Positions 1-64,000 of a stretch of 64,000 nt of DNA are shown piece by piece. How positions within the stretch are numbered: position 1 is the first letter of the stretch; the number at the start of each line of letters is the position of its first letter. The stretch lies in NCBI GenBank assembly GCA_021904315.1, contig CM038923.1, positions 14,824,038-14,888,037 on the forward strand, read 5' to 3'. The notes beneath the pieces were generated by a model, which saw nothing but the letters and a program-made list of their open reading frames with translations, was not told where the DNA came from and ran no database searches. This stretch comes from Sphagnum magellanicum (lineage: Eukaryota; Streptophyta; Sphagnopsida; Sphagnales; Sphagnaceae). The translations under genes and the position numbers were made by a program.

Positions 1-3000
1 GAGTCATGTTTAGTTAACATTTTCCCCCAAGGACATGTAAACATTGTATTATCCATAATCTATAATTTCGTAGTTGACAAGCATTCAACTATAAGGTTTT
101 GCTCCATTTTCTTTCTAACCCTACAATTTAAAAATTGCATACATTTATGAAGGATATGTAGATACAACTTGCACACTTTAGAACTTATATAATTTGTCAT
201 TGTTATTGTTCAAAATGCAATTGAGTTGATTCCTAGTTGATACCTCAAAGCAAATATTCAATATTCCACATCATGATTTTAATGTCAGACAACTTGTTGA
301 TGATGAAAATGAAGTTTGCCCATTTATTTCCATTTCAGATTTTGGTTATGCTAATGATTGCCAATTTTTTAAATAAATATTGTGGATTATTGCCACAAGT
401 AATCTAATGAAAACCCACAAGCTTTTTGACCTTTAAATCCATCAATATACACTTGTTTAGATGTTGCTAAAATAGGAATGGAAAGAACCCTTTATAAAGT
501 GGTGTCAATTTTATTAATTATCTTCAAATGGCAAAGAATTTTTACTTTGATAAAATTTTAAGATAAATTAATGTAAACATAATATTTACTTGGAGATGTT
601 AATCTAGAAAAGGCTAATTCAATGTTTTTTAATTTTAAAAACACCATAACTTCATAATTGGCTTTCAAGTTTTCAGCACAAATAAATTTTCTAATAAAAA
701 ATTTAAAGGATTTTTTTAATTTATTGATAAATGTATCATCAAAATTATATATATATATATATGCAACGTAAATTCCTTTTCCTAGATATTTTTGACATTT
801 TTTCAATAATTGTATTACTATGAAAAATTCCAATTAAAGGAAATTGGTTCACAATATTTCCGATTGTCTAACAAATTGAAATGAAACATCAATTTTTAAT
901 AACTCTAAACTCTCATCCTACAAAGCAAGATATTTTCTGATTAATTTTTTTTTGAAAATGGCAGAAAATTTAATGTTCAAGAAATAAATTCAGTAATAAA
1001 TGAAATAATTTTTGAAAATCTAATTTTTTTACAAAGTTCTAGATCCTTCAATTTAAATTTTATGATTCAAAAAATTTCATATATCCTTTAATTTTATAAA
1101 AAAAATCTCAATGGAAACATTGTGATGGCAAGACTTTAATTTCTTGGAAATTATTGGAAATTAAATAATTTGTTGATTTTGAATACTTTGAATGAATTAT
1201 TCAAATTATTTCCATTAGAAGCCCCTTTTGTATATATCAAATGGCAATAGGTCAATCGGGTCCAAACTACTATTTTTGATTTTGACAAATTTTTACATCC
1301 CAGTGATAAAACAAAAGTGAAAGCAACTCATACCAAGGTTTTTTTGGGGGTAAAAAAAGCCCAAAGCCACCACAATATGAGAGTTCAAACCAATTGAAAT
1401 CACCATATTTAAACAAGGGGTTTTAACATGTCATTGAAATATGACAAAATTACCCAACTTTTGACCAAATTTGGACACGTCCTCTTGTGGACAATTGCCA
1501 TGCCGCCTACCTTGCAAAATTGCAAAAGAAAAACATTGGTTTAAACTCTAAACACATTCAAAGAAGCCGGCAAGATTACTTTATTAAATGATCATACATC
1601 TTTTTACCCAAAATAACCTTTCATTAAAAAAAATTTGAGTGAAAATTTCTAGGACATGTTATTTAACATGCTTATAATTTCCATGATATATCACACGTGT
1701 TTTAATCATTGTTGATGAAATATGAATTTTTAAAAGTGTACAAATTATACAAGTTTCTGTTTTTCACGTGAAAATTGATCATAATTTTAAATCATATTAA
1801 AATATGTTCATTCCTTTAAATGTGCACTTTTTTTTACTATGCCCCATATACATGTGATAAAGGAATCTTGAAATTTTGATATTTAAAACATATTTTGAAA
1901 TTTCTAAAAAAATCATTTTACATTAAAAAATTTTTAGTGTTCTTTTGAGTGTGGCTAATAGCTTCTTATGATCTAAATGTTTTTATCATCAAAAGATTAA
2001 TTATGGCACCCAAAAAAAAAAAAGTCTTTTTGCAAAATTGTCCTTATCTAATGCATTTGTTGTTCACTTTCAAAAGTCCTTAATTTTAAAAAAAACCTAA
2101 AGTTGGATTAAATGCATTTTTAATTTGAATATCCTAACATTGATTTTAGTCATTTAACTTGATATGATTACCATGGTTTTCAAATGAAAAAAACATAAAT
2201 AAATTTATGATCATTTGTAATTTTCACTCTAATGGATGCTTTTTTTGACTCCTTTAAATGTGTTTTCACCCAAGTTCATCCAAATGGATGAAATAAAAAT
2301 AATCAATATATCCTTGTGTGCTCATCTAGTGTACTTGTGAAGAAGCCTTTGCTATTAGTTGTTTAAATGTTGTCCAAATTCTTGTCCACATCTTCACTTC
2401 AATGTGTGTATAAAATTTAAAGGTTACAAGATTCTTTATTTTGTTCACATTTTATTTTAATTAGGGTTTGAAAGTTGGGGTTTGATCAAGGTGAAGATTT
2501 TTTAAAACTAGCCTTATAATGTATAATAAGAAGTAGTAATAGTTGAAGTAAAAGGTGTTAGCTTCTTTTTCTATAAAATTCACTCTTCTCTTGAATTGAA
2601 TTCCAATTTAAAATAAGAAATCAAACTATGGCATGAAGTGATCTCTTGGTGAAAAATCAAATTATTGAAGTGTATGTTGGCACAAACTATTCATTCTCAA
2701 AGATTATGATCTACATTTAATCTAAGATAATTCTAAAAACAATTTGTGGAATAGTTGAATTTAACAGGTGTTGAAAATTCAAATTGGATACAAAAGCATT
2801 AGACTGGTGTTTGTGTTGATTGCAATTCCATGTCATATTGTTGGAATCTCTAGAAATCATTGAGGATACAACTTACATTGTTGAAAATGTTGCAACATTT
2901 GATTTGTTTTTCCCTCCCACTAGGGGTTAGTCCTACCCCAAGGTGGTCCCCCTCACACCATTGAGGTCTCCTCTTTTCCCAATAACTCAACCCCATCAAG

Positions 3001-3835
3001 ATCTTATCCTACCCAAATCATGGGAATCCACTCCAATCCTCATGGAGGTGCACTTTCCCAAAGGGTCATTCCCCCATTAAGGTTCATAATCTCCTTGTTA
3101 AGGGAAGGGGGGAAATAATTTAGTGGAAGGTTAGTTGAAAACTCTATCTAATTTCCCCTACCCATGTAAGGTCTTTTCCAAAAACAATTAATGTTGGGTG
3201 GGTTTCATTTTTTAGATGTTGATTAGTCTCAATTTCTTTCAAGCAATTACAAGGATTATAATGGTTCTATATTTTTTAAGGATTTAAATATTTAACCACA
3301 TTATGATTTTTTTTTAAAAATTCATTTCCAGCCTTGCTAGCATTCACCTTTCTAATATGAATTAACACATTAAAGCTAAATTAAGAGAAAAAATGAATTA
3401 AAACATTAAAGTTGAATTTTGAAATATTATTTGATATTTACTAGAGTGTAGAATTTTCTTGGGTACAAATTAGAATAAACACAAGTTATAACCCACTCAT
3501 GTCTACCCTTCCAATATTTCTTGAGCTAGGTTACACATTTAATTGCAAACAAGATTAAACAAATTTTATAAAAACATATTTGAGGTGTGTACAAGCGTTG
3601 TTACATAATGGTCCATACCTTTCAAAAAATATGGACCTAAAACAAGTTCATTGAAAACCTTCTTCTAAACACATAATTTCACAACTTATAATAAATTTGA
3701 AGGCTATAGTCATAGCATTTAAATTTGCAAATTCATCTTTCACATATGTAAGTTTTTTCTTCAAACCATACTAGTCCAATTATTGTGTCAAATTTTTTTG
3801 AAATTTTTCTATTGCCTCAAATGGTCTAATAGTTA
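1..3835. other. AT-rich gene-poor stretch
   Basis: No reading frame here resembles a known protein. The sequence is very AT-rich, with many homopolymer runs and a short (AT)n tract near 748-762. A less AT-rich patch with several short C-rich and G-rich runs lies at about 2905-3190. I see no terminal repeats, RNA gene or coding signal. Confidence 0.6.
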
Positions 3836-4687
3836 TGTAACCAAAAAGAGAGGGTCCTGAAAACACAGCGCACTGATTGCCTTCAACGAAACCAAGCGTC
3901 CATCTTCTCCTGAGTCACTCACATACAACTCAGACCTCCAAAAACACAGCACACAACCTACCTACTGACTCTTTCAGACAAGCATCACGAAATCACAAAC
4001 CTGCAAGCATTTTCTTCCTACACAGCAGCGGAACAGGATTTCAATGGATCTATTTCCTGCCTTACACATTCCCACAGATGCTGGCAAGGGAAACTCTCTT
4101 GTTTCATTACAAACCCTGTACATTCCCCGAAAGCACAAGCTTGCTTTCCGTCTGAGATGTTCACAAAAACATCAGATTCCTAGCACTCTCTGAGCTCTCT
4201 CTCTAATTCTCATGCAGTAACTTGACTGATTTCTCAGGCGCAGCGGAAGTTTCTAACCTTCAACCAAGCTACCCACACACTAAACTTTCTCTCCCTTTTC
4301 ACAAGGATTGCTCCTCCTCTACCTCCTCCTTCTCTGTCTATGTTCTCTAATCACCAAAAATCTGCCTCTCTCTCCTTCACCGAGCTCCTTCTTCTCTCCA
4401 GAACTCTGTCACACCCAAGCGTCCTCCTGCTCTGTTCTACACCAAGCTTCCCCATCAAGCTTTTCCTCCTTTTCCACCTTTCGGCGCATCAATGCAACTC
4501 CACTCCTCTTCATCATTCGCGCCGCCTTCACTCCTGCACACCCACTCACATAAACGTCCCATGCACAACCATGCAGCCGTCATGGAGAAAAACATCCGCC
4601 GCCAATATCAGGACGACTTAATTATACCAAAGCACACCCTCAATGCCTGGGTGTTCACACTGGGTTGAAACCCACTTTCGGGTTACA
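3836..4687. mobile_element. 852-bp TG...CA insertion, probable solo LTR
   Basis: This block is clearly richer in G+C and in pyrimidine runs than its AT-rich surroundings. It begins TGTAACC and ends GGGTTACA, so the ends are inverted and have the TG...CA form of LTRs. The 4-bp GTTA stands immediately on both sides (3832-3835 and 4688-4691) as a candidate target-site duplication. No reading frame inside looks like a protein. A solo LTR left by recombination fits best. A terminal-inverted-repeat element with short ends is the alternative, since a 4-bp duplication is short for an LTR element. Orientation is unknown. Confidence 0.55.
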
Positions 4688-48774: not shown

Positions 48775-48956
48775 TTATAATTCAGAGGACTCTTTAAAAT
48801 TGGTATGAATTGGGATGTTAATTGTTCCAACTTTCATGGGGAGGTTTGTTATCTTTCATGTGTGTTTATAATTCAGAGGACTCTTTAAAATTGGTATGAA
48901 TTGGGATGTTAATTGTTCCAACTTTCATGGGGAGGTTTGTTATCTTTCATGTGTGT
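48775..48956. repeat. 91-bp tandem duplication
   Basis: 48775-48865 and 48866-48956 are the same 91-bp unit (beginning ttataattcagaggactc, ending ttcatgtgtg) back to back with essentially no differences, so the duplication is recent. Confidence 0.9.
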
Positions 48957-51631
48957 TCTACATATTCAATAATTTCGAGTCTCTTGCACACTCTGCCTTT
49001 TTACAAGAGTATCTTTAGACATGGTTTGAACTTTCAACTGCTTGAAGAATTGGATTCCCCATGTGCATGACTATTTCACAATGCGGAAAACTGTGAATAG
49101 TGAAGGGGTAGATCCAATTTGGACAACTGTAGCTGGAGTACACATGACATGTGCCTATCTGACTTATGAAAGATAGCATTTTCTACCTTTTGCAAAAATG
49201 GAATCTGTCCTTGTGTTTTTCTCTCAAATTTTGTCACATTATGATAGATAAACTTCAAACATACACTCCAACTTGAAGTTTGAAATTCTATCATTGTTGA
49301 TTGTGCACATACATGCTTTTTTAGAGGAGTTGCAAACAAGAATTCATCCTCTAAAGATCCAATTGATGGACACTAGTTCATTCACAAACGACTTCTCATC
49401 AATCCAAGATGGTGTGTGGTTAATGATGAGAATCCAATGAAATAAGATTTTTTGTGATTAAGTCATGATCCCACTAAGAATTGATTCATTCTTGAAGGTG
49501 GGTTCAACTCCACAGAGGCAAGGTTTTTTCTTTTCAATTTAGTGATTTCCAAAAATTGGTGACATTCTCCAAAAAATTAGCAAAATTAGTTGAATTTTCA
49601 TGCTAGATAAACAAAAATTTCCAAAAGTTTCTCAAATTTTTGGTCAAAGAAAGGACAACATCTGTTAGGGGAAAAACATTGGAGGCAAGGGTCTCAAACC
49701 TAATCACTTTCTCCTAACAAGTGTCAGCAAATGATCTAAGCATTTGTTGAGAAGTGACACATGGTGTTGCAAGACAAAATTCAATGACATGAATTCAAAC
49801 ATCTTTATCCAAATAGTCTTTTGAAATTTTCTTCAACAACACATTGACAAAATGATCTTTTGGGAGAACTTTCACAAGCGCCCATTAAGGATGAAATGTG
49901 AGAATTTTTCATTCATATGGATAAAAATTGTTATTAGGTATTTTCCAAAGTATGGGCAGATTATGAATGGGAAATTTTCAAGATGTCGTCATCATCATCA
50001 TTATGGATGAAATATTAGAGGTGACCTCTTAAGGCATGTATGCCTTTTGAAAATGGACATTAATGTCATTCATGACATCACCTCCCTTTTAACAAAAAGT
50101 TCCACGAGAAACAACCAAAGGTTTGTCCAAATATTGAACATGTGAAATACATTAACCTTTTTTAGGGCATTTTGTGAAATGTTGCATTAGATCCCATCGT
50201 TAATTCCAAACATCATAACCTCCCCCAATAAACAAGAAAGGTACAAAAGTATGTAAGTTTTGACTAGCAAATCTACGTTGTAATTGGATAATTGCTTTTT
50301 TTTTCATTCATGCTTGTTGGCAAATAAAAGTGTTGCACAAATATTACCTAGTACCATAGTACCTTTTTAGGTTTGGCACATGAGCATTGAATAATTTATT
50401 TATTCTAAAAATCCACTTTTATGGTTTTTAAAAAAAAGAAATATTGAGCCTAAATATAGGCAATTTCTTCGGCAAGTTCTCTTGATTTTGAGCTTTGAAC
50501 ATCTAACAAAAGGGGACATTTTACAACATTTTTTACAATATCCTTTTGCGAAAATGGGGAAAGATAACATTCCACCAAATTATTGGATGCTTGTTCTACA
50601 ATGGTGGATTGATTTGAAGCATGAAACTCCTAGGTTTTGAGGTCAATATTTGTATTTTGTATTTTCTTGAAGTTTTTGTGCATGCACGTCATTGTTGTTC
50701 CTTTTTTAGTTAATGTGACACTAATTTGACACATAATTGTAACTAGTTCAAGCAAAACATAGTTGTATTTTTAAGACTATATAATTGACTATTAAAAAAA
50801 AAAATTGTAAACACTTGGTAGTTTAGAAATAATTATAGATAGGTTTTCACATTAGCTTTTGTTATTTTAAATATTTTAAAAATCATATAAATTTTTATAA
50901 TTAAAATTTTTAAATTATTATTTCAGAAATAATATTTTATTTGGGATGGTTGTTTTGACTAATGTGTGTCTACAATAGCTTTATAAATAGTCTTAAGTTA
51001 TCATTTTTTATCATTTTTTGGTTGTAGATCTTTTGTTTTGCAATAATTGGTATTGTGTCTTTGAGACTAAATTTTGTCTACAAGTATGATGTCGTGTAGT
51101 TATATCTCATAGTTTAAAAAACTAGTTTTAGTTGGAAAGTTTGGTCCACATGAATTAACCATCCATAAATTGGATTCTACATAGTTTTAAGGATAGGTCT
51201 TCCAATGGTTATAAAGGCACATTGCTTTTGTCCAAATACTCATATAATCATCATCAATATGGTACTAGATATTTTACATATATGCACATAAAGTGTTATC
51301 ACACTTAATACACTTTGCAAATGCTTACAAATAAAGCATGACTAATATAACAAATTTGTGCCAATGCAATGCATACATAAAGAAAAGGAAGTACATGCAT
51401 ATGGGCATACATATGGTTTCACCCTTTGGATATATTTTGCAATAGTGGGATATGGATCAAACAAATAACATTCTATCACGTGTTCAGTTGTAATTGGGAA
51501 ATACCAACACCTTAGGAATCCAAAATATTCCCACAATCCACTATCTATTAAACCCAACCCAAAGTATTGAAAAATTCAAACAAGCTTCATATTTCCCTTC
51601 CTCCACATAACAAGGGAACCTTCTACATCCT
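48957..51631. other. AT-rich gene-poor stretch
   Basis: No gene is supported. It probably contains decayed transposon DNA belonging to the CACTA relic that follows, but no terminal repeats or clear coding fragments were found. Confidence 0.45.
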
Positions 51632-55602: not shown

Positions 55603-55858
55603 GATGGAGTTGGATGTTGAAGACAATCTAGCAAAACAAGTTTCACAATTTGTCAACCATGATCAATTGTGGGAACACGAAGAAGTACAAGTAGATAAAT
55701 TGGGTCTTACAAAATACCAATGTCCTTGTAATAATTGCCATGGGTCCAAAGTTCTACTTTGGTCAACAATTAGACAACACTTACAAAAATTTGGCCGTGA
55801 TGACTTCTTCACTCAATCTATATTGATGAGCATTAACGGTTCTCTATTTTGCATTTGA
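55603..55858 (+). pseudogene. Fragment of En/Spm transposase-associated domain
   Basis: The plus-strand frame from ATG 55603 contains KYQCPCNNCHGSKVLLWSTI followed by RQHLQKFG. This matches the N-terminal transposase-associated zinc-binding domain of plant CACTA transposases (CPC..C......V..HL...GF). The frame stops soon after, and the Copia LTR begins at about 56111, so the rest of the transposase is missing or interrupted. With the minus-strand relic at 51.6-54.4 kb it would make a divergently transcribed CACTA gene pair. Confidence 0.55.
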
Positions 55859-56110
55859 TTTCATTATAATGTTAGTAAGAATATTGATAAGGTGATTCAT
55901 TACATTGTTGTTGCTATTGTAAGCTAAATGACGCCCATATGTGGAATTTGCAATGAATTCATCCCTAAAGGATTTTGTTGTTGGTTTCCCAACTACCATG
56001 TGTTCTCCCCCATCCATTCCTAAGGTCATAGTAGATTTGGCAAGTTATGGACATGGAAAACAAATTGGCCAATGGCTTACCTTGCTAATTCCCTGATTAA
56101 CCCCATTCAC

Positions 56111-56424
56111 TATTGAGAATTCAAGCTCAACTAGTTAAGTTTCATTAGTTACTGGAGTAGGAAAGTAACTAGGTTACTTTCACAAGGTTGAATTACTTTT
56201 TTTTACTTATTTTAGTTTGGTTATTTGGGGTTTGGTCTTGTAGTTAAATACCTTGGTGTTGATGGTTTGTTTCTCTTTTCTTCATTACACAAGTTTGTGT
56301 ATTTCTTGTGACAAGAACCTTGGAGAGTTCTTGATGTTGTGTTTTGTGTTGTGAGCATTATGTTGTAGTTTCCTTTCAATAAAGATTTATGTTTGCACTT
56401 GAGTAGATCTCCTATTTGTTAACA
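56111..56424 (+). repeat. 5' LTR of Copia retrotransposon
   Basis: The right edge is fixed by the primer-binding site starting at 56425, and the LTR ends AACA. The left edge is less sure: TATTGAGAATTC at 56111 may be a mutated TG start, or the LTR starts at TGAGAATTC (56114). A CAATAAAG polyadenylation signal lies near 56379. The 3' LTR is not in the window. Confidence 0.65.
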
Positions 56425-56436: not shown

Positions 56437-57637
56437 TTAGGTTGTTTGATGAGGAAGTTGAAAGAGATCTAGAGCTAGAAAGTCTCTAGTAATATCACAG
56501 GAGTTTGTCAAGTGCAAAAGAGAAACGAGGAAAGGAAAGAATGTGAAGAGAAAGAAAAGAAAAGAAAAGAGGTGAGAGGAAATCAACATATCAAAGTTGT
56601 GGAAGTCAGATCTTTAAACCTAGATCTAGATCTACTGTGAAAAGATCTTGAAGTGAAACTTAGAGGGATTGTAGAAGACTATAAGACGCTTCTATTCTCA
56701 AATTTTCAAAAGAAAAGGATACGTTTTGTGAGAGTTATGAGCTTTTGAAGATTTTGTGTCAGATCTGGTTTTTTTGGTCATATCTCCTTTGTTTAAGCTT
56801 TTCTGGATCTGCAGCTTTCGGATCTTATAGATCATATAGGAATACATGTGTGAGAGAAATTTCATGTCATTTGGATTTATATTGAGAGAGATTCAAGCAT
56901 CTAAAGTTTCAGTTTCAATTTTGAAATCAGTTTCTTTTGAAAGTGATATCTCTTTGTGGTCATCATTAATAGAGCTGAAATTTTGAGCAAATATAGAAGA
57001 TATATATCTTATGTGTCTCCCAAAATCTCAAGGATTTTGGAGTTGCTGAGAGCAAGTTGTAAGTCATTTTGTGTTCAGGTCCTAGTTTGAGGTGACTTCA
57101 AAGAAGTAGCAAGATCTTTCATTTTATGAAGTTAAATGAGCTGAAATTTTGAAAGAAGTTAGTAGACATAGTTGTTCATGTTTCAACAGAATTTTAGAAC
57201 GATTGAAGGTCATATGTGTGTGGAGTAGCTTTGCAAAGTTGCTGTGACAAAAGTTGTTTTGAGAAGACATCAAAGCAAAGTTTTGAAGTGGAGCAAATAC
57301 ATCTTGGGAGAACTTGAAGGAAGGAGTTTGGAGGTTGGGAAGCGCAAATACATTATCGAGACCTTCGTACAAAAGTGTGGTATGTAATCATGTACTTAAT
57401 ACCATACGAAATATTATACGAGATACGTACCTATACATAAAACCTATGTATAGTATAAAATTTCGTATAATACTCAAGACATACATACATATGCAAGGTC
57501 CATATGGTTCAGCCCTAACCCTAACCCTAATCCTAGAAACCTAAGGAAGGAAAACCCTAACCCTAACCCTAGAAACCCAAGGAAGGAATTAAAATCATTG
57601 TGAAACCTCAAGAAGACATTGAGTGGTGCCTTGAGAG
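56437..57637 (+). other. Copia leader with telomere-like repeats
   Basis: An unusually long untranslated region of about 1.2 kb between primer site and gag. The first part is purine-rich (gaaa/gaga runs near 56520-56580). Near the gag start, at 57511-57573, two clusters of CCCTAA repeats appear, separated by 'tcctagaaacctaaggaagg'. No frame is supported. Confidence 0.6.
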
Positions 57638-58591
57638 ATGGCGGATGGCCTTTCTCAAATTGCAATTGAGAAACTAGACAAGAACAATTTCCAAGTGTGG
57701 AAATTTAGGATTATGAATTTCTTGATGGGGAAAGGCTACTGGGAATTCATAACTGGTGATGAGATAGAACCTCCTCTCCCAGAAAACCCCACACAACAGC
57801 AAATTCAAGCCAATAAAACTTGGCATGAAAAAGAAAGGAAAGTCTTGTATTGGCTTTCTGTGAGTGTGTCCGATTCCATGATTGTGCATATTCAAGATGC
57901 AAAATCACCCAAGCAAGCTTGGGATACATTGGTGAAGATGTATAGCACCAATACACAAGCCCGCAAAATGCAACTCAAACAAGAGTTGCATAATTTACAG
58001 AAAAACAAAATGAACATCAATGACTATTCTACAAAGGTGAAAAACCTTGCAGATGTTCTTGCATCTATAGGAGCCCCTGTAGATGATGAAAATTTAGTGG
58101 CCGTGACCTTAAATGGACTTAGAAAAGACTATAGCCAGTTCCGTACTTCAATTGCAGTTCGAGAAACATTTCCCAACTTCCAAGATTTAATAACACTACT
58201 TATAAGTGAAGAGATGAGAATTGTTGGTACTTCATCCAATGGAGGATCACAAGAAAGTGCTTTCTACTCAAATACCAATAGAGGTAAAGGCAGAGGTGGT
58301 AAAACCTCATTTCGAGGTCGACCTGGAAGCTCGCATGGTGGACATCATCAACATGAAGGTCAAGCTCATGGAGGTGGACGAGGAAACTTTAGAGGAAGAG
58401 GAAGTCGAGGAAGTCATGGAGGTTGTGGTGGAAGCCATCGAGGTCAACAACCAAATAGCGATTCAAATTGCTACTACTGCGGGAAACCTGGGCACATGGC
58501 CAAGAACTGTTATCAAAGGGAGCATGATGCACGAAGTGGAAAGTTACAACAAGGGAATTATGCATCAACTAGCAATCAAGGTGATGAGTAA
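57638..58591 (+). pseudogene. Copia gag (UBN2-type) with CCHC zinc knuckle
   Basis: A 317-residue capsid/nucleocapsid region of a Copia retrotransposon. It has the typical start (IEKLDKNNFQVWKFRI, then GYWEF), a UBN2-like gag core with WDTLVKMY and KMQLKQELHNL, a Gly/Arg/His-rich tail, and a CCHC knuckle CYYCGKPGHMAKNC at 278-291. The start at 57638 (MADGLSQ) is the first ATG of the frame. An in-frame TAA (58589-58591) cuts gag from the protease frame, which continues in the same register with no frameshift; Copia elements normally read through as one polyprotein. I take it as a disabling stop. Confidence 0.88.
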
Positions 58592-59008
58592 CTGTTTGTG
58601 ATGCAGCACATGGCAAATTCAATGATAGGAGGTGTATCAGACAACAATGTCTGGTATGCGGATTCTGGAGCTTCAAACCACATGACTAGCCATGGAGAAT
58701 GGTTTAGAGACGCAAAGGATTTGAAGACACCAGGGTTTGTGGAAACTGGTGATGACACTACACATCCCATCACACAGATTGGCAAGGTGCCATTGTCCAT
58801 GCAAGATGGGCAAACAAAGTACCTAAAAGATGTACTTCATGTTCCAACCATAACAAAAAATTTGGTCTCCGTAGGCCAGATGGTGGAACAAGGTTTACAG
58901 GTGACATTTAACCCAAATGGATGTTTTGTGGAAGACATGAAGAACCAAGGAAAATTGATTGCAAAAGGAGAAAGGAATGGACGAATGTTCACCTTGGATG
59001 TGAACATG
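58592..59008 (+). pseudogene. Copia protease, truncated by CACTA insertion
   Basis: Continues in the gag frame past the TAA. It contains YADSGASNHMT, the aspartic protease active site of Copia elements, then VLHVPTITKNLVSVGQM and the pre-integrase segment. The frame is intact until ...MFTLDVNM, where CACTAG begins at 59009. No integrase, reverse transcriptase or RNase H follows in the window. Confidence 0.88.
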
Positions 59009-59403
59009 CACTAGAAGAAAACTGGGTTTTTGTAACCAACCAATTTGCGACTAGTTGCGACTATTTGACATTTACGACTATTGTTGGTCATATTTACAAC
59101 TACTTTTTGCATTTGGTCTTGCTTGCAACTACTCTATGACCAACTTGCGACTAATGGATTTTTTCATCCTTTCATTTGGATAGCTTTCAACACAATTTCC
59201 ATCCAAGAAGACCCTTCTACCTACCATTAGTTACAAATCACCAAATGAGTCGTAACCCTGTGGGTATTTCAAATGTATTATACACATTTTAGGCATAAGG
59301 GGTCCACAATTGTGTATTGAATGTATTCTACTCATTATTATATGGGTACATACTAAGATGTACCCATATATTACTCAAGGTCTTAGCAAGTTTCTGTTTG
59401 AAG

Positions 59404-62085
59404 ATGAACTTCTTTGGTGGCGTTTCAGTTCCTGATCTGAGTGGCATCGAGGCGATGGCCTCGGGGGAGATATCGGCAGTGTTGCCAGAAGGTGGCGGTG
59501 CAAGTGGCGGCACCGCAATACCTTGGATAGGAGGTGGATCGGTAAGGGGCAGTACAAGAGGAGGAAGCGGTGTTTCTTTAGGTGGTCTTGTGTCAAGGAG
59601 TTTGAGGGAGTTCAGTGGGAGTTTGCGGGGGATTTGGGAGTTGTTAGGCGGACAGGACAATCCGCTAGCGAGATCGTCAGTGTTGCGGCGAGAGGATGCA
59701 CAAGATGACGAGGAAGCGCTCAAGTGGGCGGCCTTGGAAAGTCTCCCTACTTACGATCGCTTGCGTACTTCCGTCTTCTTCAACTCCGCCACAGGAAACA
59801 CAGACCCCGTGGACGTGAGACTGATGACTGCCGCTGATCGCCGCCAGTTTCTTGATAGTTTGCTGAAATCTAGCGAAGATGAAAACCAGTAGATCCTAGT
59901 CAGGATGTGCAATCGCCTACAAAAGTACGTATGAAAGATTGACTTTGTGCTCCTTCTTCTGCTTCTTCTTGTCACATTTTTCAAATTTGTTAGAGAAGTT
60001 TTTTTCTTGTTCTTGTGTTATCTGGCCTCTCTCCTCCTCCCTGTTGTTTTTTTTCTAGAAATGCATTCTGATGTATGGCTGGTGGTGGTGATTAAATCGG
60101 GGATCTGTTATAGATTCACATTGCTGCTTGGTCCACCAAGTTCTAGGAAGACAACTTTGCTGCTGGCACTTGCTGGAAAGCTCGACAAGGATTTAAGGGT
60201 GAGAGCCATTGGGAGGACACTTACTGACTTGGTAGAAGCTGGTTTTCTTTGTCTAAATGGAGTCTGTGACCAAAGCTAAAAATGAGCCCTAAAGGTTTAG
60301 GGGTTTTCTGGGATTCTATATAACTCTGTGCTAAAGATTTAGGGTTTTTCAGGCTTTTGTATAATTTTGTGCTTTCTGAGAATTAATTTCATGCATTAAT
60401 TAAATGGTTACTTACGTTTATGAAATTTGCAGGTGAAGGGGAAGATCATGTATAATGGACATACGCATGATGAATTTGTGCCTAAGAAAACAGCAGCTTA
60501 TATTAGCCAGAATGATCTTCATGTTGGTGAAATGACAGTTCGTGAAACACTTGATTTCTCTGCTCAATGTCAAGGCATTGGTACCCGATATGGTCAGTTC
60601 AAAGTCCTTCCTTACAAAAATCTTTGTTACTACTATCCTACCAAAGTGTGAGATGATGGGTGCTAACTCCAAGACATCTGTTTTGTTTCTACCCCCACAA
60701 GAAGAGATTGAGAAGTCCAACTGATGGTTTTATGCACATGATTTTAGCACTTCCTTTGATGCTCCAAAGATTGCAAAAAGTCTGGATTTATTTTATATTG
60801 TGATTTTTGATTTCTGTGTGAGAGAGGTGTTGAATCTGTTTTGGTCACTTAGGGAGTCTGAGCCACTGATGTGTGATATTATTTTGTTCATACAAAATTG
60901 ATGGAAGTCAGCAGACAAGGGAAGTAGGCTGGCATTCAACCTGAGGCGGATGTGGACACCTTCATGAAAGTGAGTTGTGAAACTTTCTACACTTTTTGAA
61001 ATTGTTGCAAAAAAGAATATAGATAAAAAAAATGGTGTAGATTTTTATCCACCAGGGATGAAAGCAAAGTCCCAACAATGGGGATAGTAATGGAATCTGA
61101 GATTTAATTTGTGTCTTTGTGTGATGATTTTTTCTGCTGGTTGCAAGCAACATCTTTGGAAGGAGTTTCAAGCAGTATTGCTACAGACTACATTCTAAAG
61201 GTTAGTTGTAAAACAATACCCTAAACCCTGAAAAATGGTCATTTTAGCTCCCCTCAAAAATGGTAAAATTATTTTTTTAACTTAAGTCTAAATAAAATTT
61301 GTTTCTGTTTGCAATTCTAATTATGGCTTAATAATTCTTCCCATGTGAGACAATTCATGGACTGGAGGTGCCATTTTTACCTTTCAATTGTTATTGCAGG
61401 TATTAGGTCTTGATGTGTGTGCGAATACTATGGTTGGTGATGACCTACATCGAGGGATTTCTGGTGGACAGAGAAAACGAGTCACTACAGGTATGAATGT
61501 GATAATATCCAACTTTTTACACCAAGTTTGAGCTTCATTGTAAGATGTAGTAGTCAATTGAATCTGCTGCAGGGCTTTCTAAGAGCTTCCACGATTGCTT
61601 TCAAGCTTTACTGGGTACCAAGTAGTCATCCAATTCAAAGCTCATAGCAAGGTGATTGATGTTGAAGATACATCATCACCCATCACATGGGTTTTTTTGC
61701 AGTATTTGTACTTTAACATATGATTGGCCATTGTAACTTGGGAGCTATACACACATAACATACGATCTTTTTTTGTTTCTTTGGTGTGTGTGTTTTCTTG
61801 GACAGGTGAGATGATAGTGGGGCCAACTCGAGCATTGTTCATGGATGAGATTTCCACCGGCTTGGACAGCTCAACTACTTTCTCCATCATAAATAGTTTG
61901 CGCCAGGTTGCAAAAATACTGGATTCACAATTCTGGTGTCACTACTGCAGCCTGCTCCCGAGACTTTTAACCTGTTTGATGACATCATTCTGCTCTCTGA
62001 GGGGCATGTTGTGTATCATGGACCTCGTGATTGTGTGCTTGAGTTTTTTGAGTCTTGTGGGTGTAAGTGCCCTGATCGCATTGAG
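59404..62085 (+). pseudogene. PDR-type ABCG transporter fragment (N-terminus and first nucleotide-binding domain)
   Basis: Homologous pieces in order: N-terminal segment with DDEEALKWAALESLPTYDRL (from 59404); Walker [21 protein letters not shown] (about 60121-60180); 60433-60592 with [11 protein letters not shown] and [17 protein letters not shown]; ~60897-60969 with GIQPEADVDTFMK; 61147-61200; 61401-61490 with signature [12 protein letters not shown]; 61806-62085 with Walker [13 protein letters not shown] and [14 protein letters not shown]. Intact relatives are full-length membrane exporters; here no membrane domain follows. Lesions: TAG at 59890-59892, loss of the exons between the N-terminus and Walker A, Gly-to-Arg at 60145-60147, TAG at 60925-60927, and a one-base frameshift at about 61925. 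Introns are retained, so the copy came from genomic DNA, not mRNA. Confidence 0.88.
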
Positions 62086-62459
62086 GTGAGCATTGTATCT
62101 CTTATGCTAGGTATTCCATGTAGTTTTGAAGTGTTATTCCAGCTAGCTTGTAAGGCAAGGGCAAACTGGGAACAACTTCACTTGCCATAGTAGTGCATTA
62201 ATGATGCATTTATGGGATCTCCACTGGTTTACATGATACAATGTGCTTGTACTTTCTGTTATAAGTTAGTGGAGGTAGACGAATGTGAATCTCAAGAAAG
62301 TCACATTGTTTATCATGGCAAGGACAGGGTTTGAGGGTTCTGGTTGTTGATGACTCCTTAGTTTAAATTAATTAGTTCTATTTTTCTAGGTCAGTTTTGT
62401 ACGGGCTTGTCAAGAGTGGATCTTATGACATTATTTTATGAGCTACATTTTTTGGAGCT

Positions 62460-63071
62460 GTGCAATCTGTAGGAACATCTGAAAATTCTACAAGAAATGC
62501 CAATGGAACAACAAAGTCAGGGAGTCTAGTGGCAAGACAAGGTGCAAATCAAGCTGGTGCGTCACTTCAAAAAGAGGAGGCCATGCCAGCTAGAATGCAG
62601 CAAGGACTTGATATGGGGATGAATAGCAACAAAGGGGCTATAAAGGGAGGACAGTATGAGGAATTAGATTGCTTGCATCTTGGAGGCATAGCAAAAGTGA
62701 CCAGTGGGAGCTCTATGGCTCAGAAGGGACCAGGCCTGGCTTCAACAATTGCAGTTCCTATTTCTCGCAATCCTGCTAAGTCTAAGGTGAATGGGCATCT
62801 GACAGGAGTTATGGGTTCAAAGGGGAAGGTCAAGGGAGCTAGTTCACCAGGAGGTGCAACTAATGGCTCAAATGGTCTTGCTGTGTTATCAAATATTCCA
62901 ACAACCTATGTTTTGAATTCTACAGGCCAAGGCTTACTAACAGCTAGAAATTTGGGCAGCCATCATGCTCCTTCAAAGTTGGCATTGGATGGGTTAAGGT
63001 CTCTGAGAATTAGTTTGTTAGAGGCAGCCACATGTATGCTTGTTGGCACATGTATAATTGATGTGCTCTAA
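62460..63071 (+). CDS. Unrecognised Gly/Ser/Ala/Asn-rich reading frame in CACTA element
   Basis: A 203-codon open frame, long for this AT-rich region. The product is hydrophilic and rich in Gly, Ser, Ala, Asn and Lys (for example GSKGKVKGASSPGGATNGSN), with no recognised domain, signal peptide or membrane segment. It resembles a disordered part of a nuclear or regulatory protein. It may be a second captured gene fragment, with its true start upstream by splicing. The last ~20 codons (from LRISLLEAATCMLV) look less like the rest and may be intron read-through. Function unknown. Confidence 0.4.
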   Translation: MQSVGTSENSTRNANGTTKSGSLVARQGANQAGASLQKEEAMPARMQQGLDMGMNSNKGAIKGGQYEELDCLHLGGIAKVTSGSSMAQKGPGLASTIAVPISRNPAKSKVNGHLTGVMGSKGKVKGASSPGGATNGSNGLAVLSNIPTTYVLNSTGQGLLTARNLGSHHAPSKLALDGLRSLRISLLEAATCMLVGTCIIDVL

Positions 63072-64000
63072 ACTGACAAACTATGGACATTTGAATCCAT
63101 TTTATGCAGACACTTGCAAAGTGAAGGTTACACCAGGATACACCTACTTGGTCCACATTGTGAGTTGATGCATGAATTTTGGGCTCTATTTTGCACTTGC
63201 AGACCACTCACTTGTACTGGTGTTAGTAGATTTTTGAGCTCAATGGAAAGCATTTTCCATGTCCATTTTGTGTGTGATTAGTGAACCATTGTAACCCTAA
63301 CCCTAGAACATTGTTAATTAAACCCTAAAATGTTAACCTCAATTCATAATGTTAAACTTGGGTCCATTATTCCTTTTCAATAAAAATGTATTTTACAAAT
63401 TATTTAACATTGCCATGTGGCATGTTTCTATTCCTTGATCTTTAGAATATGTGGTAGATTTGAAATGTCCATTCAAATAATAATGTGACACGTGTCAAGA
63501 TCCTCATTCTTGACATCTGATGAATGGGATATATCCTGGGTTTTTAATATATATTTAAATGCCACGATGTTCATAATGAAACACATGGCACATTTCGATT
63601 AGCCAAACACAAAAGACGTGGCCATTTCTTGGCCATAAGATTAAAAAAATTCTAGATCATCTAATTTCATGATCTGGGAAAATCAAACCCTCTAATCAAA
63701 TGCCACATGTTTCCACATGGTTGGAATTTGGATCCACCAAAATAGTTGCAATTTATAGTCGCAAAATGATGCCTTGTATACATTATGTATATACTGGCCC
63801 CATCGGATGAAATAATATATACTAAATGTAGGCTTCATCTACCATTTGATGACGTCATCCTTATGTAATGTTTTGCGACTATTTGTCTTCTGCGACTTGT
63901 CTTAGGCGACTATTAGACAATTAGTTGTAAAATGTCTCTTTCAACTAAAAAATAGTCGTAGACACTAGTTGTAAATAAAGGTTTTTCTTCTAGTGAGTGT

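What the first reader, a model, noticed from the sequence alone, without database searches (positions are those of the whole stretch)
59009..63995. Gene-capturing CACTA element inserted in a Copia retrotransposon
The Copia protease frame runs intact to the codon before CACTAG. The inserted ~5 kb has matching inverted CACTA ends and subterminal word arrays, no visible transposase, and intron-containing ABC transporter sequence plus a second unknown frame. This is the structure of a Pack-CACTA, which can shuffle exons and give rise to small RNAs against the donor gene.
Basis: partly seen in the sequence, partly recalled or inferred. Interest (0 to 1): 0.8.

Follow-up and report, generated by a model that had tools for sequence, protein, structure and literature searches.

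The report
Gene-carrying CACTA transposon inside a retrotransposon
This is a jumping DNA element in what looks like a peat moss genome; it carries decayed pieces of several host genes, including a transporter gene, and it landed inside another jumping element, which makes it a well-documented new case of a known kind.

Summary
Confirmed. 59009-63995 is one 4,987-bp non-autonomous CACTA element (Pack-CACTA). Its 13-bp inverted ends match exactly, and a 98%-identical sister on contig C10 has the same ends and a clean AAA/AAA target duplication, so the two ends belong to one element. The family is large: 73 sites fit a left-end pattern and 35 a right-end pattern, none in reversed controls. Of 23 other complete copies checked, 18 have 3-bp duplications (2 after moving a border by eye).

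Donors were found. The ABC (PDR-type) sequence comes from a native gene on C14 at about 95%, introns included, minus 1.39 kb. The 'unknown frame' matches a locus on C15 at 95%. Remnants of a kelch-like and a multicopper-oxidase-like sequence are also present. The ABC copy is decayed (stop codon, frameshift).

The host is a young Copia (3 differences in 314-bp LTRs, TTCAC on both sides). One correction: this is not a clean insertion. 371 bp of Copia are missing at the site and there is no CACTA target duplication (ATG/AGT).

Two same-ended relatives contain transposase sequence; nesting was not excluded. Relatives show serial, interior capture. The kind is known from soybean, Arabidopsis and maize; three searches showed no moss report.

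The parts
56106..56110 (+). TTCAC, left target duplication of the host Copia (same TTCAC after its right LTR, beyond the window)
56111..56424 (+). left LTR (314 bp) of the host Copia; the right LTR lies about 2.5 kb beyond the CACTA element, 3 of 314 differences
57638..59008 (+). Copia gag and zinc knuckle, in-frame stop at 58589-58591, then protease-side pol (Pol_BBD), cut at the CACTA border
   Evidence: 39 other copies of 58600-59008 scored (of 478 candidates) at 98-99%
59009..59021 (+). left terminal inverted repeat CACTAGAAGAAAA
59009..59375 (+). conserved left end of the CACTA family with RCRACTA subterminal words
59375..59447 (+). 73-bp remnant of the earlier, kelch-like cargo (bases 3589-3661 of the 4,038-bp block in L042, also in L043 and L046)
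59447..60012 (+). captured first exon (with ATG) and start of the following intron of a PDR-type ABC gene, from C14:13267063-13266498; premature TAG
60013..62080 (+). captured nucleotide-binding-domain exons and introns of the same gene, from C14:13265110-13263056, 94.7%; 1-bp frameshift; 1,387 donor bases missing between the two parts
62082..62363 (+). 282-bp remnant of the kelch-like cargo (bases 3757-4038 of that block)
63032..63222 (+). remnant of a multicopper-oxidase-like cargo that is longer in relative L052 (and L053)
63222..63995 (+). conserved right end of the CACTA family with inverted subterminal words
63983..63995 (-). right terminal inverted repeat
63996..64000 (+). Copia resumes (integrase), after a gap of 371 bp relative to two uninterrupted Copia copies

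Best explanation
A Pack-CACTA: a non-autonomous DNA transposon that keeps the ends recognised by a tnp2-type transposase supplied in trans by relatives, and whose interior is assembled from pieces of host genes. SHOWN: one unit with matching ends and a full-length sister; a large family; a native donor gene for the ABC piece and matching loci for two more pieces; decayed ABC cargo; insertion in a young Copia with 371 bp of Copia missing. SHOWN BY COMPARISON OF RELATIVES: cargo was added in steps inside existing elements. The C15-type piece is contiguous in L047 and L052. In L042, L043 and L046 a 4,038-bp kelch-like block sits between two adjacent bases of it. In the window element and its sister a C14 ABC piece stands where 92-95 bp of that block are in those three. 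INFERRED: deletions at a 4-bp and a 5-bp repeated word trimmed the cargo; pieces were taken up as repair patches copied or ligated into breaks within an element; the transposase acts in trans; the copy then inserted in the Copia, and an aberrant end reaction or later event removed the adjacent 371 bp and the target duplication.
For: Ends and family: 73 sites, 0 control; 35 sites, 0 control; 30 left-right pairs; 11 of 13 with 3-bp TSD, read by eye; 5 of 10 by script, 7 of 10 after moving two borders to CTAGTG by eye. Sister: (96 substitutions, 75 of them transitions). Donors: C14 (ABC2_membrane in the part that was not captured, E 4.5e-38), C15, kelch-like C11 at 85%. Serial capture and junctions. 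Decay: the exon-1 TAG is shared by 4 of 4 ABC copies; the 1-bp deletion is in both copies read in full; exon divergence 3.1% against intron 3.7%. Trans factor: same-ended elements with TSD and a PF02992 match without stops inside, C2:8082001-8062816 and C2:13725337-13750836. Host Copia.
Against: The window copy itself has no target duplication, so its own insertion step is not textbook. The right ends of the four elements with tnp2 at 10.4 kb from the left end were not reached. That the tnp2 genes inside the two paired elements are not nested insertions was not tested. The kelch-like locus on C11 is only 85% identical, although its capture should be later than that of the 95%-identical C15 piece, so C11 is probably a paralogue of the true donor. 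The C15 locus was read over 3.0 kb only and the match reaches the edge of that stretch, so that it is a native gene rests on the open frame going on beyond the shared part. Of 23 other copies 5 lack a clean 3-bp duplication.
Confidence: 0.88

Rival explanations
1. The site is the product of two CACTA copies inserted in the same Copia (one after ATG, one before AGT) that recombined, leaving one element with mismatched flanks and losing the 371 bp between.
For: Left flank ends in ATG and right flank begins with AGT, and exactly the Copia segment between those two points is missing. Either trinucleotide could have been a TSD.
Against: Differences from the sister copy are spread along the element (6-18 per 500 bp), with no clear sign of a mosaic; a single insertion followed by an end-adjacent deletion needs fewer steps. 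Recombination between two near-identical copies would leave no mosaic, so this is weak.
Confidence: 0.2
2. Capture followed the tandem-array model proposed for Arabidopsis: two neighbouring elements flanking the donor gene lost complementary ends and moved as one hybrid.
For: This is the mechanism described for Pack-CACTA in the review PMC13317346 (passages), and a related one (neighbouring elements moving as one) for Pack-TYPE elements in PMC8903248 (passages).
Against: The breakpoints on the two sides of the ABC piece lie 92-95 bp apart in an 8.4-kb acceptor, and those of the kelch-like block lie between two adjacent bases. Two independent truncations would rarely coincide so closely, and this would have to happen twice.
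Confidence: 0.2
3. Cargo is exapted: the ABC and C15 pieces make a functional chimeric protein or a regulatory RNA that acts on the C14 gene.
For: Four copies carry the ABC piece, and exons and introns are retained at about 95%, which is enough identity for small RNAs to match the donor. The frame of the C15 piece is still open in this copy and free of stops in 12 of the 26 matching places listed, partial places and the C15 locus counted.
Against: Stop codon, frameshift, and a Walker A change in this copy; exon and intron divergence nearly equal (3.1% and 3.7%); C-to-T or G-to-A in 24 of 28 changes specific to this copy and 17 of 24 specific to the sister, as expected of a methylated repeat. 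No RNA data were available.
Confidence: 0.1
4. A native ABC gene interrupted by repeats, with CACTA-like ends by chance.
For: Only the intron-containing ABC sequence itself.
Against: Right flank is Copia; the native gene is on C14 with its membrane-domain exon; the ends are shared by dozens of elements.
Confidence: 0.01

Closest known systems
Tgm-Express1 of soybean (wp allele; PMC1947982, abstract seen)
   Different: It sits in an intron of a gene and is spliced into its transcripts; here the host is a Copia retrotransposon, donor and acceptor relatives can be traced, and nothing is known of transcription
Pack-CACTA of Arabidopsis and the Pack-TYPE survey (PMC8903248, passages seen; the original Arabidopsis paper was not held)
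   Same: CACTA ends, target duplication, captured host coding DNA, cargo from more than one locus
   Different: A moss-like genome with captures nested inside earlier cargo; the survey's main text has 0 hits for moss, bryophyte or Physcomitr
Tpn1 family of morning glory (PMC5105172, listing and start of abstract only)
   Same: gene-carrying CACTA family with non-autonomous members (recalled)
   Different: host lineage; ends not compared by sequence here

Membership tests
Pack-CACTA (CACTA superfamily) | terminal inverted repeats starting CACTA | tested here: met
   13 of 13 bases, 0 in shuffles; shared by the family
Pack-CACTA (CACTA superfamily) | 3-bp target site duplication, family level | tested here: met
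   18 of 23 other complete copies (16 of 23 without moving two borders by eye)
Pack-CACTA (CACTA superfamily) | 3-bp target site duplication, this copy | tested here: not met
   ATG/AGT, in line with 371 bp of missing target; the sister copy has AAA/AAA
Pack-CACTA (CACTA superfamily) | subterminal repeat words | tested here: met
   13 of 16 RCRACTA words in the terminal 500 bp; 10-13 such words in the terminal 500 bp of each of the 14 elements read
Pack-CACTA (CACTA superfamily) | no transposase of its own | tested here: met
   no tblastn match (E up to 1) of one tnp2 protein in 14 of 14 elements; no transposase family among 10 ORFs of the window element scanned with Pfam (8, 2)
Pack-CACTA (CACTA superfamily) | captured host coding DNA with native donor elsewhere | tested here: met
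   C14 gene; C15 locus, native status inferred
Pack-CACTA (CACTA superfamily) | autonomous relative with compatible ends | tested here: inconclusive
   two paired same-ended elements with TSD contain PF02992 matches, but nesting was not excluded and binding cannot be tested here
Ty1/Copia (host element) | LTRs, 5-bp duplication, gag-pol in Copia order | tested here: met
   LTRs and TTCAC; Copia-type gag and Pol_BBD; integrase and reverse transcriptase were recognised by eye in the translation, not scanned

The most novel reading that the evidence does not exclude
In this family gene capture is an interior repair process: host gene DNA is patched into breaks within an already loaded element, one capture on top of another and with almost no loss at the junction, rather than by fusion of neighbouring elements. 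A peat moss genome would then hold a readable step-by-step record of it (C15 piece, then kelch-like block, then ABC piece).
Probability: 0.45. Interest if true: 0.55.

Novelty: new member of a known kind. Interest (0 to 1): 0.4.

Why it matters
How DNA transposons pick up genes is still argued. Here a donor gene, relatives that look like the acceptor before capture, and products after capture are all present in one assembly, so junctions can be read base by base and the tandem-array and repair-patch models can be compared. It also shows gene capture by CACTA elements in what appears to be a moss, where CACTA is the most abundant classified repeat (6.8% of the genome; PMC9946827, passages), and it warns that gene models in such genomes may be transposon cargo.

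Tried and rejected
Native ABC gene at this locus: rejected. Two different elements supplying the two ends: rejected for the element as a unit by the full-length sister. Simple insertion with a mutated duplication: rejected by the missing 371 bp. C14:46094-46405 as donor of the second frame: a 312-bp, 91% piece only; replaced by C15. Autonomous right ends for the 10.4-kb tnp2 class: 5.1-5.2 kb from tnp2 outward on C11 and C1 and then 7.0 kb more on C1 gave no family end, and the last part of that stretch read N. Pfam scans of 30 of the 412 ORFs of at least 60 aa found in relatives gave matches for 6: Cu-oxidase, AP2, M18 peptidase, E1-E2 ATPase, and sub-cut-off kelch and OSTMP1; 24 of 30 had none. 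Of the 8 element ORFs two had matches, ABC2_membrane_7 (over its cut-off) and DUF2817 (E 0.048, under its cut-off, ignored); the ABC exons were named mainly from DNA identity to the C14 gene. Walker A and B, PDR exon order and the exon borders used are recalled or set by eye. Four of the 73 sites need care: two pairs stand head to head about 0.1 kb apart (C4:6681329/6681479, C7:1945116/1945246), so the pattern also catches short relatives.
Full report
What was checked. The window is C17:14824038-14888037 of a 439-Mb assembly in 31 contigs. The size and a small C20 (4.72 Mb) fit Sphagnum divinum (439 Mb, 20 chromosomes, chromosome 20 of 5.4 Mb, CACTA the most abundant classified repeat at 6.8%; PMC9946827, passages). 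The species is an inference, and the C20 size is not identical.

Ends. CACTAGAAGAAAA at 59009 and its reverse complement ending at 63995 are the only two copies in the window, with none in 100 shuffles. Matches to 59000-59300 elsewhere in the genome begin at CACTAG or within a few bases (40 scored of 202 candidates). Matches to 63700-64000 end at CTAGTG or within a few bases (40 scored of 623). A degenerate left-end pattern has 73 sites and a right-end pattern 35; the reversed controls have 0. The 73 include two head-to-head pairs about 0.1 kb apart, so not every site is a full left end of this family. Pairing 80 left and 50 right positions gave 30 left-right pairs 4.2-33.7 kb apart, the largest possibly mispaired. 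RCRACTA words concentrate in the terminal 500 bp of all 14 elements read (10-13 words each).

One element, not two. C10:7656590-7661574 is a full-length sister: 100 differing columns of 4,988, made up of 96 substitutions (75 transitions) and 4 gap columns, spread along the length, with AAA on both sides. Eleven of 13 fully read relatives have a perfect 3-bp duplication (read by eye). Of 10 more pairs, 5 are perfect by script and 2 more when the computed border is moved to CTAGTG. Misses were L042, L046, C19:4244657, C6:9495342 and C5:20938707. The window copy also misses: ATG against AGT. Six of the 30 pairs were not examined.

The host and the missing bases. The Copia has 314-bp LTRs with 3 differences and TTCAC at both ends; 39 other copies of its protease stretch are 98-99% identical (of 478 candidates, 40 scored). 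It is not an intact element: there is an in-frame stop between gag and protease and there are stops in the right flank. In two uninterrupted copies the left flank ends at base 50 and the right flank resumes at base 422, the latter at 96-97% identity, so 371 bp between them are absent here. Because the Copia has matching LTRs and one duplication, this is one Copia, not two fragments. A CACTA insertion with a one-sided deletion starting at the element border fits, on either side (TSD ATG or AGT). Two insertions that recombined is the main rival.

Cargo. Bases 439-1004 and 1005-3072 of the element match C14:13267063-13266498 and 13265110-13263056 at 95-96% and 94.7%, introns included. The native gene goes on with a membrane-domain exon (PF01061, E 4.5e-38) that the element lacks. 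The capture starts 8 bp before the ATG. 1,387 donor bases are missing between the two parts at a shared TTGT. Two paralogues, on C13 and C3, keep 1.0-1.3 kb more there than the element, so the loss is in the element. Four elements carry ABC cargo (window, C10, C4, C6); in the C4 and C6 copies the match stops at window position 61543 and the rest was not read. All four have the exon-1 TAG; both copies read in full have a 1-bp deletion in the Walker B exon. The window copy also has GPPSSRKTT where the donor has GPPSSGKTT, and two splice acceptors (as I place them) read AA instead of AG. Exon and intron divergence from the donor are alike (38 of 1,209 and 52 of 1,397). The cargo is decaying, not conserved.

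Second frame. 62364-63031 matches C15:10435508-10436177 at 95.2%; there an open frame of 289 codons continues past the shared part. It has no Pfam match. No CACTA end lies in the 3.0 kb read there, but the match with relatives L042, L043, L047 and L053 reaches the first base of that stretch (L046 and L052 start within 6 bases), so its left limit is unknown. About 20 places in the genome hold this piece; those that were read in full are family elements. The next 190 bp match relatives; in L052 the same stretch runs into a multicopper-oxidase ORF (PF00394, E 2.8e-8). In the window only the beginning is left, and the oxidase match itself overlaps it by a few codons only.

Order of events. In L047 and L052 the C15 piece is contiguous over at least 1,770 bp. 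In L042, L043 and L046 a 4,038-bp block sits between C15 bases 1108 and 1109 with no loss. That block is colinear with C11:4084157-4088344 at 85%, in two stretches, and in L043 holds a kelch-like ORF below Pfam's cut-off. In the window element only 73 and 282 bp of the block remain, on either side of the ABC piece; 92-95 bp of the acceptor are replaced, with 0-1 shared base at one junction and one extra base at the other. Compared with L052, 1.86 kb are absent at a 5-bp word that L052 has on both sides (element bases 4210-4214); I read this as a loss because the oxidase ORF is unbroken in L052. So captures were added inside loaded elements. Two independent truncations of neighbouring elements, as in the tandem-array model (PMC13317346, passages), would seldom meet within 95 bp, and then at adjacent bases; a repair patch is the simpler reading. 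This is inference. One thing does not fit: the kelch-like block should be younger than the C15 piece, yet its best native match is more divergent (85% against 95%). The true donor may be lost or a paralogue.

Movement. PF02992 (tnp2) matches 152 places (150 of 657 candidates scored, list cut). At four loci tnp2 lies 10,414 or 10,425 bp inward of a family left end (differences taken); two of these are 99.3% identical over 5.15 kb; an ORF of at least 616 aa at one of them carries PF02992 at E 1.7e-68. Their right ends were not found. Two paired elements with perfect TSD, C2:8062816-8082001 and C2:13725337-13750836, contain PF02992 matches without stops. None of the 14 fully read elements matches the tnp2 protein from C11. 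Supply in trans is the likely route and is not shown.

Breadth. Among 30 ORFs of relatives scanned, some carry AP2, M18 aminopeptidase, E1-E2 ATPase and multicopper oxidase, so the family as a whole carries several genes.

Known or new. Gene-carrying CACTA elements are known: Tgm-Express1 with five gene fragments (PMC1947982, abstract), Pack-CACTA of Arabidopsis and maize (PMC8903248, passages). Searches for Sphagnum with CACTA (18 papers, only the genome paper relevant by title), Sphagnum with transposable element and gene capture (none) and CACTA with moss and gene fragments (12 listed, none on this by title) gave no earlier report; only open-licence papers were searched. New member of a known kind.

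Noticed in passing
window 55661-55810 and C17:14892421-14893017 (beyond the window): CACTA tnp2-like sequence on both sides of the Copia (39% over 51 aa on the left; PF02992 194 bits with 2 stops on the right), so the Copia itself may sit in an older CACTA element: a nest of three.
   Followed up: no
window 57517-57588: Two 36-bp units holding telomere-like AACCCTAACCCTAACCCTAG inside the Copia, between LTR and gag.
   Followed up: no
L055 (C14 donor, upstream of its ATG): CACTAGAAGAGAA, one base from the family's 13-bp end sequence, upstream of the captured gene; chance or a hint at how capture began.
   Followed up: no
C11:4084157-4088344 against C15:10435508-10436177: Divergences from the native loci run against the order of capture (85% for the later block, 95% for the earlier one).
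   Followed up: partly
window 59336-59373: Near-perfect palindrome TATTATATGGGTACAT/ATGTACCCATATATTA just where the window element and relatives such as L042 part company.
   Followed up: partly
window 48775-48957: A 91-bp unit repeated twice with 100% match.
   Followed up: no
L044, L050, L052 (other family members): Relatives carry AP2, M18 aminopeptidase, P-type ATPase and multicopper oxidase pieces.
   Followed up: partly
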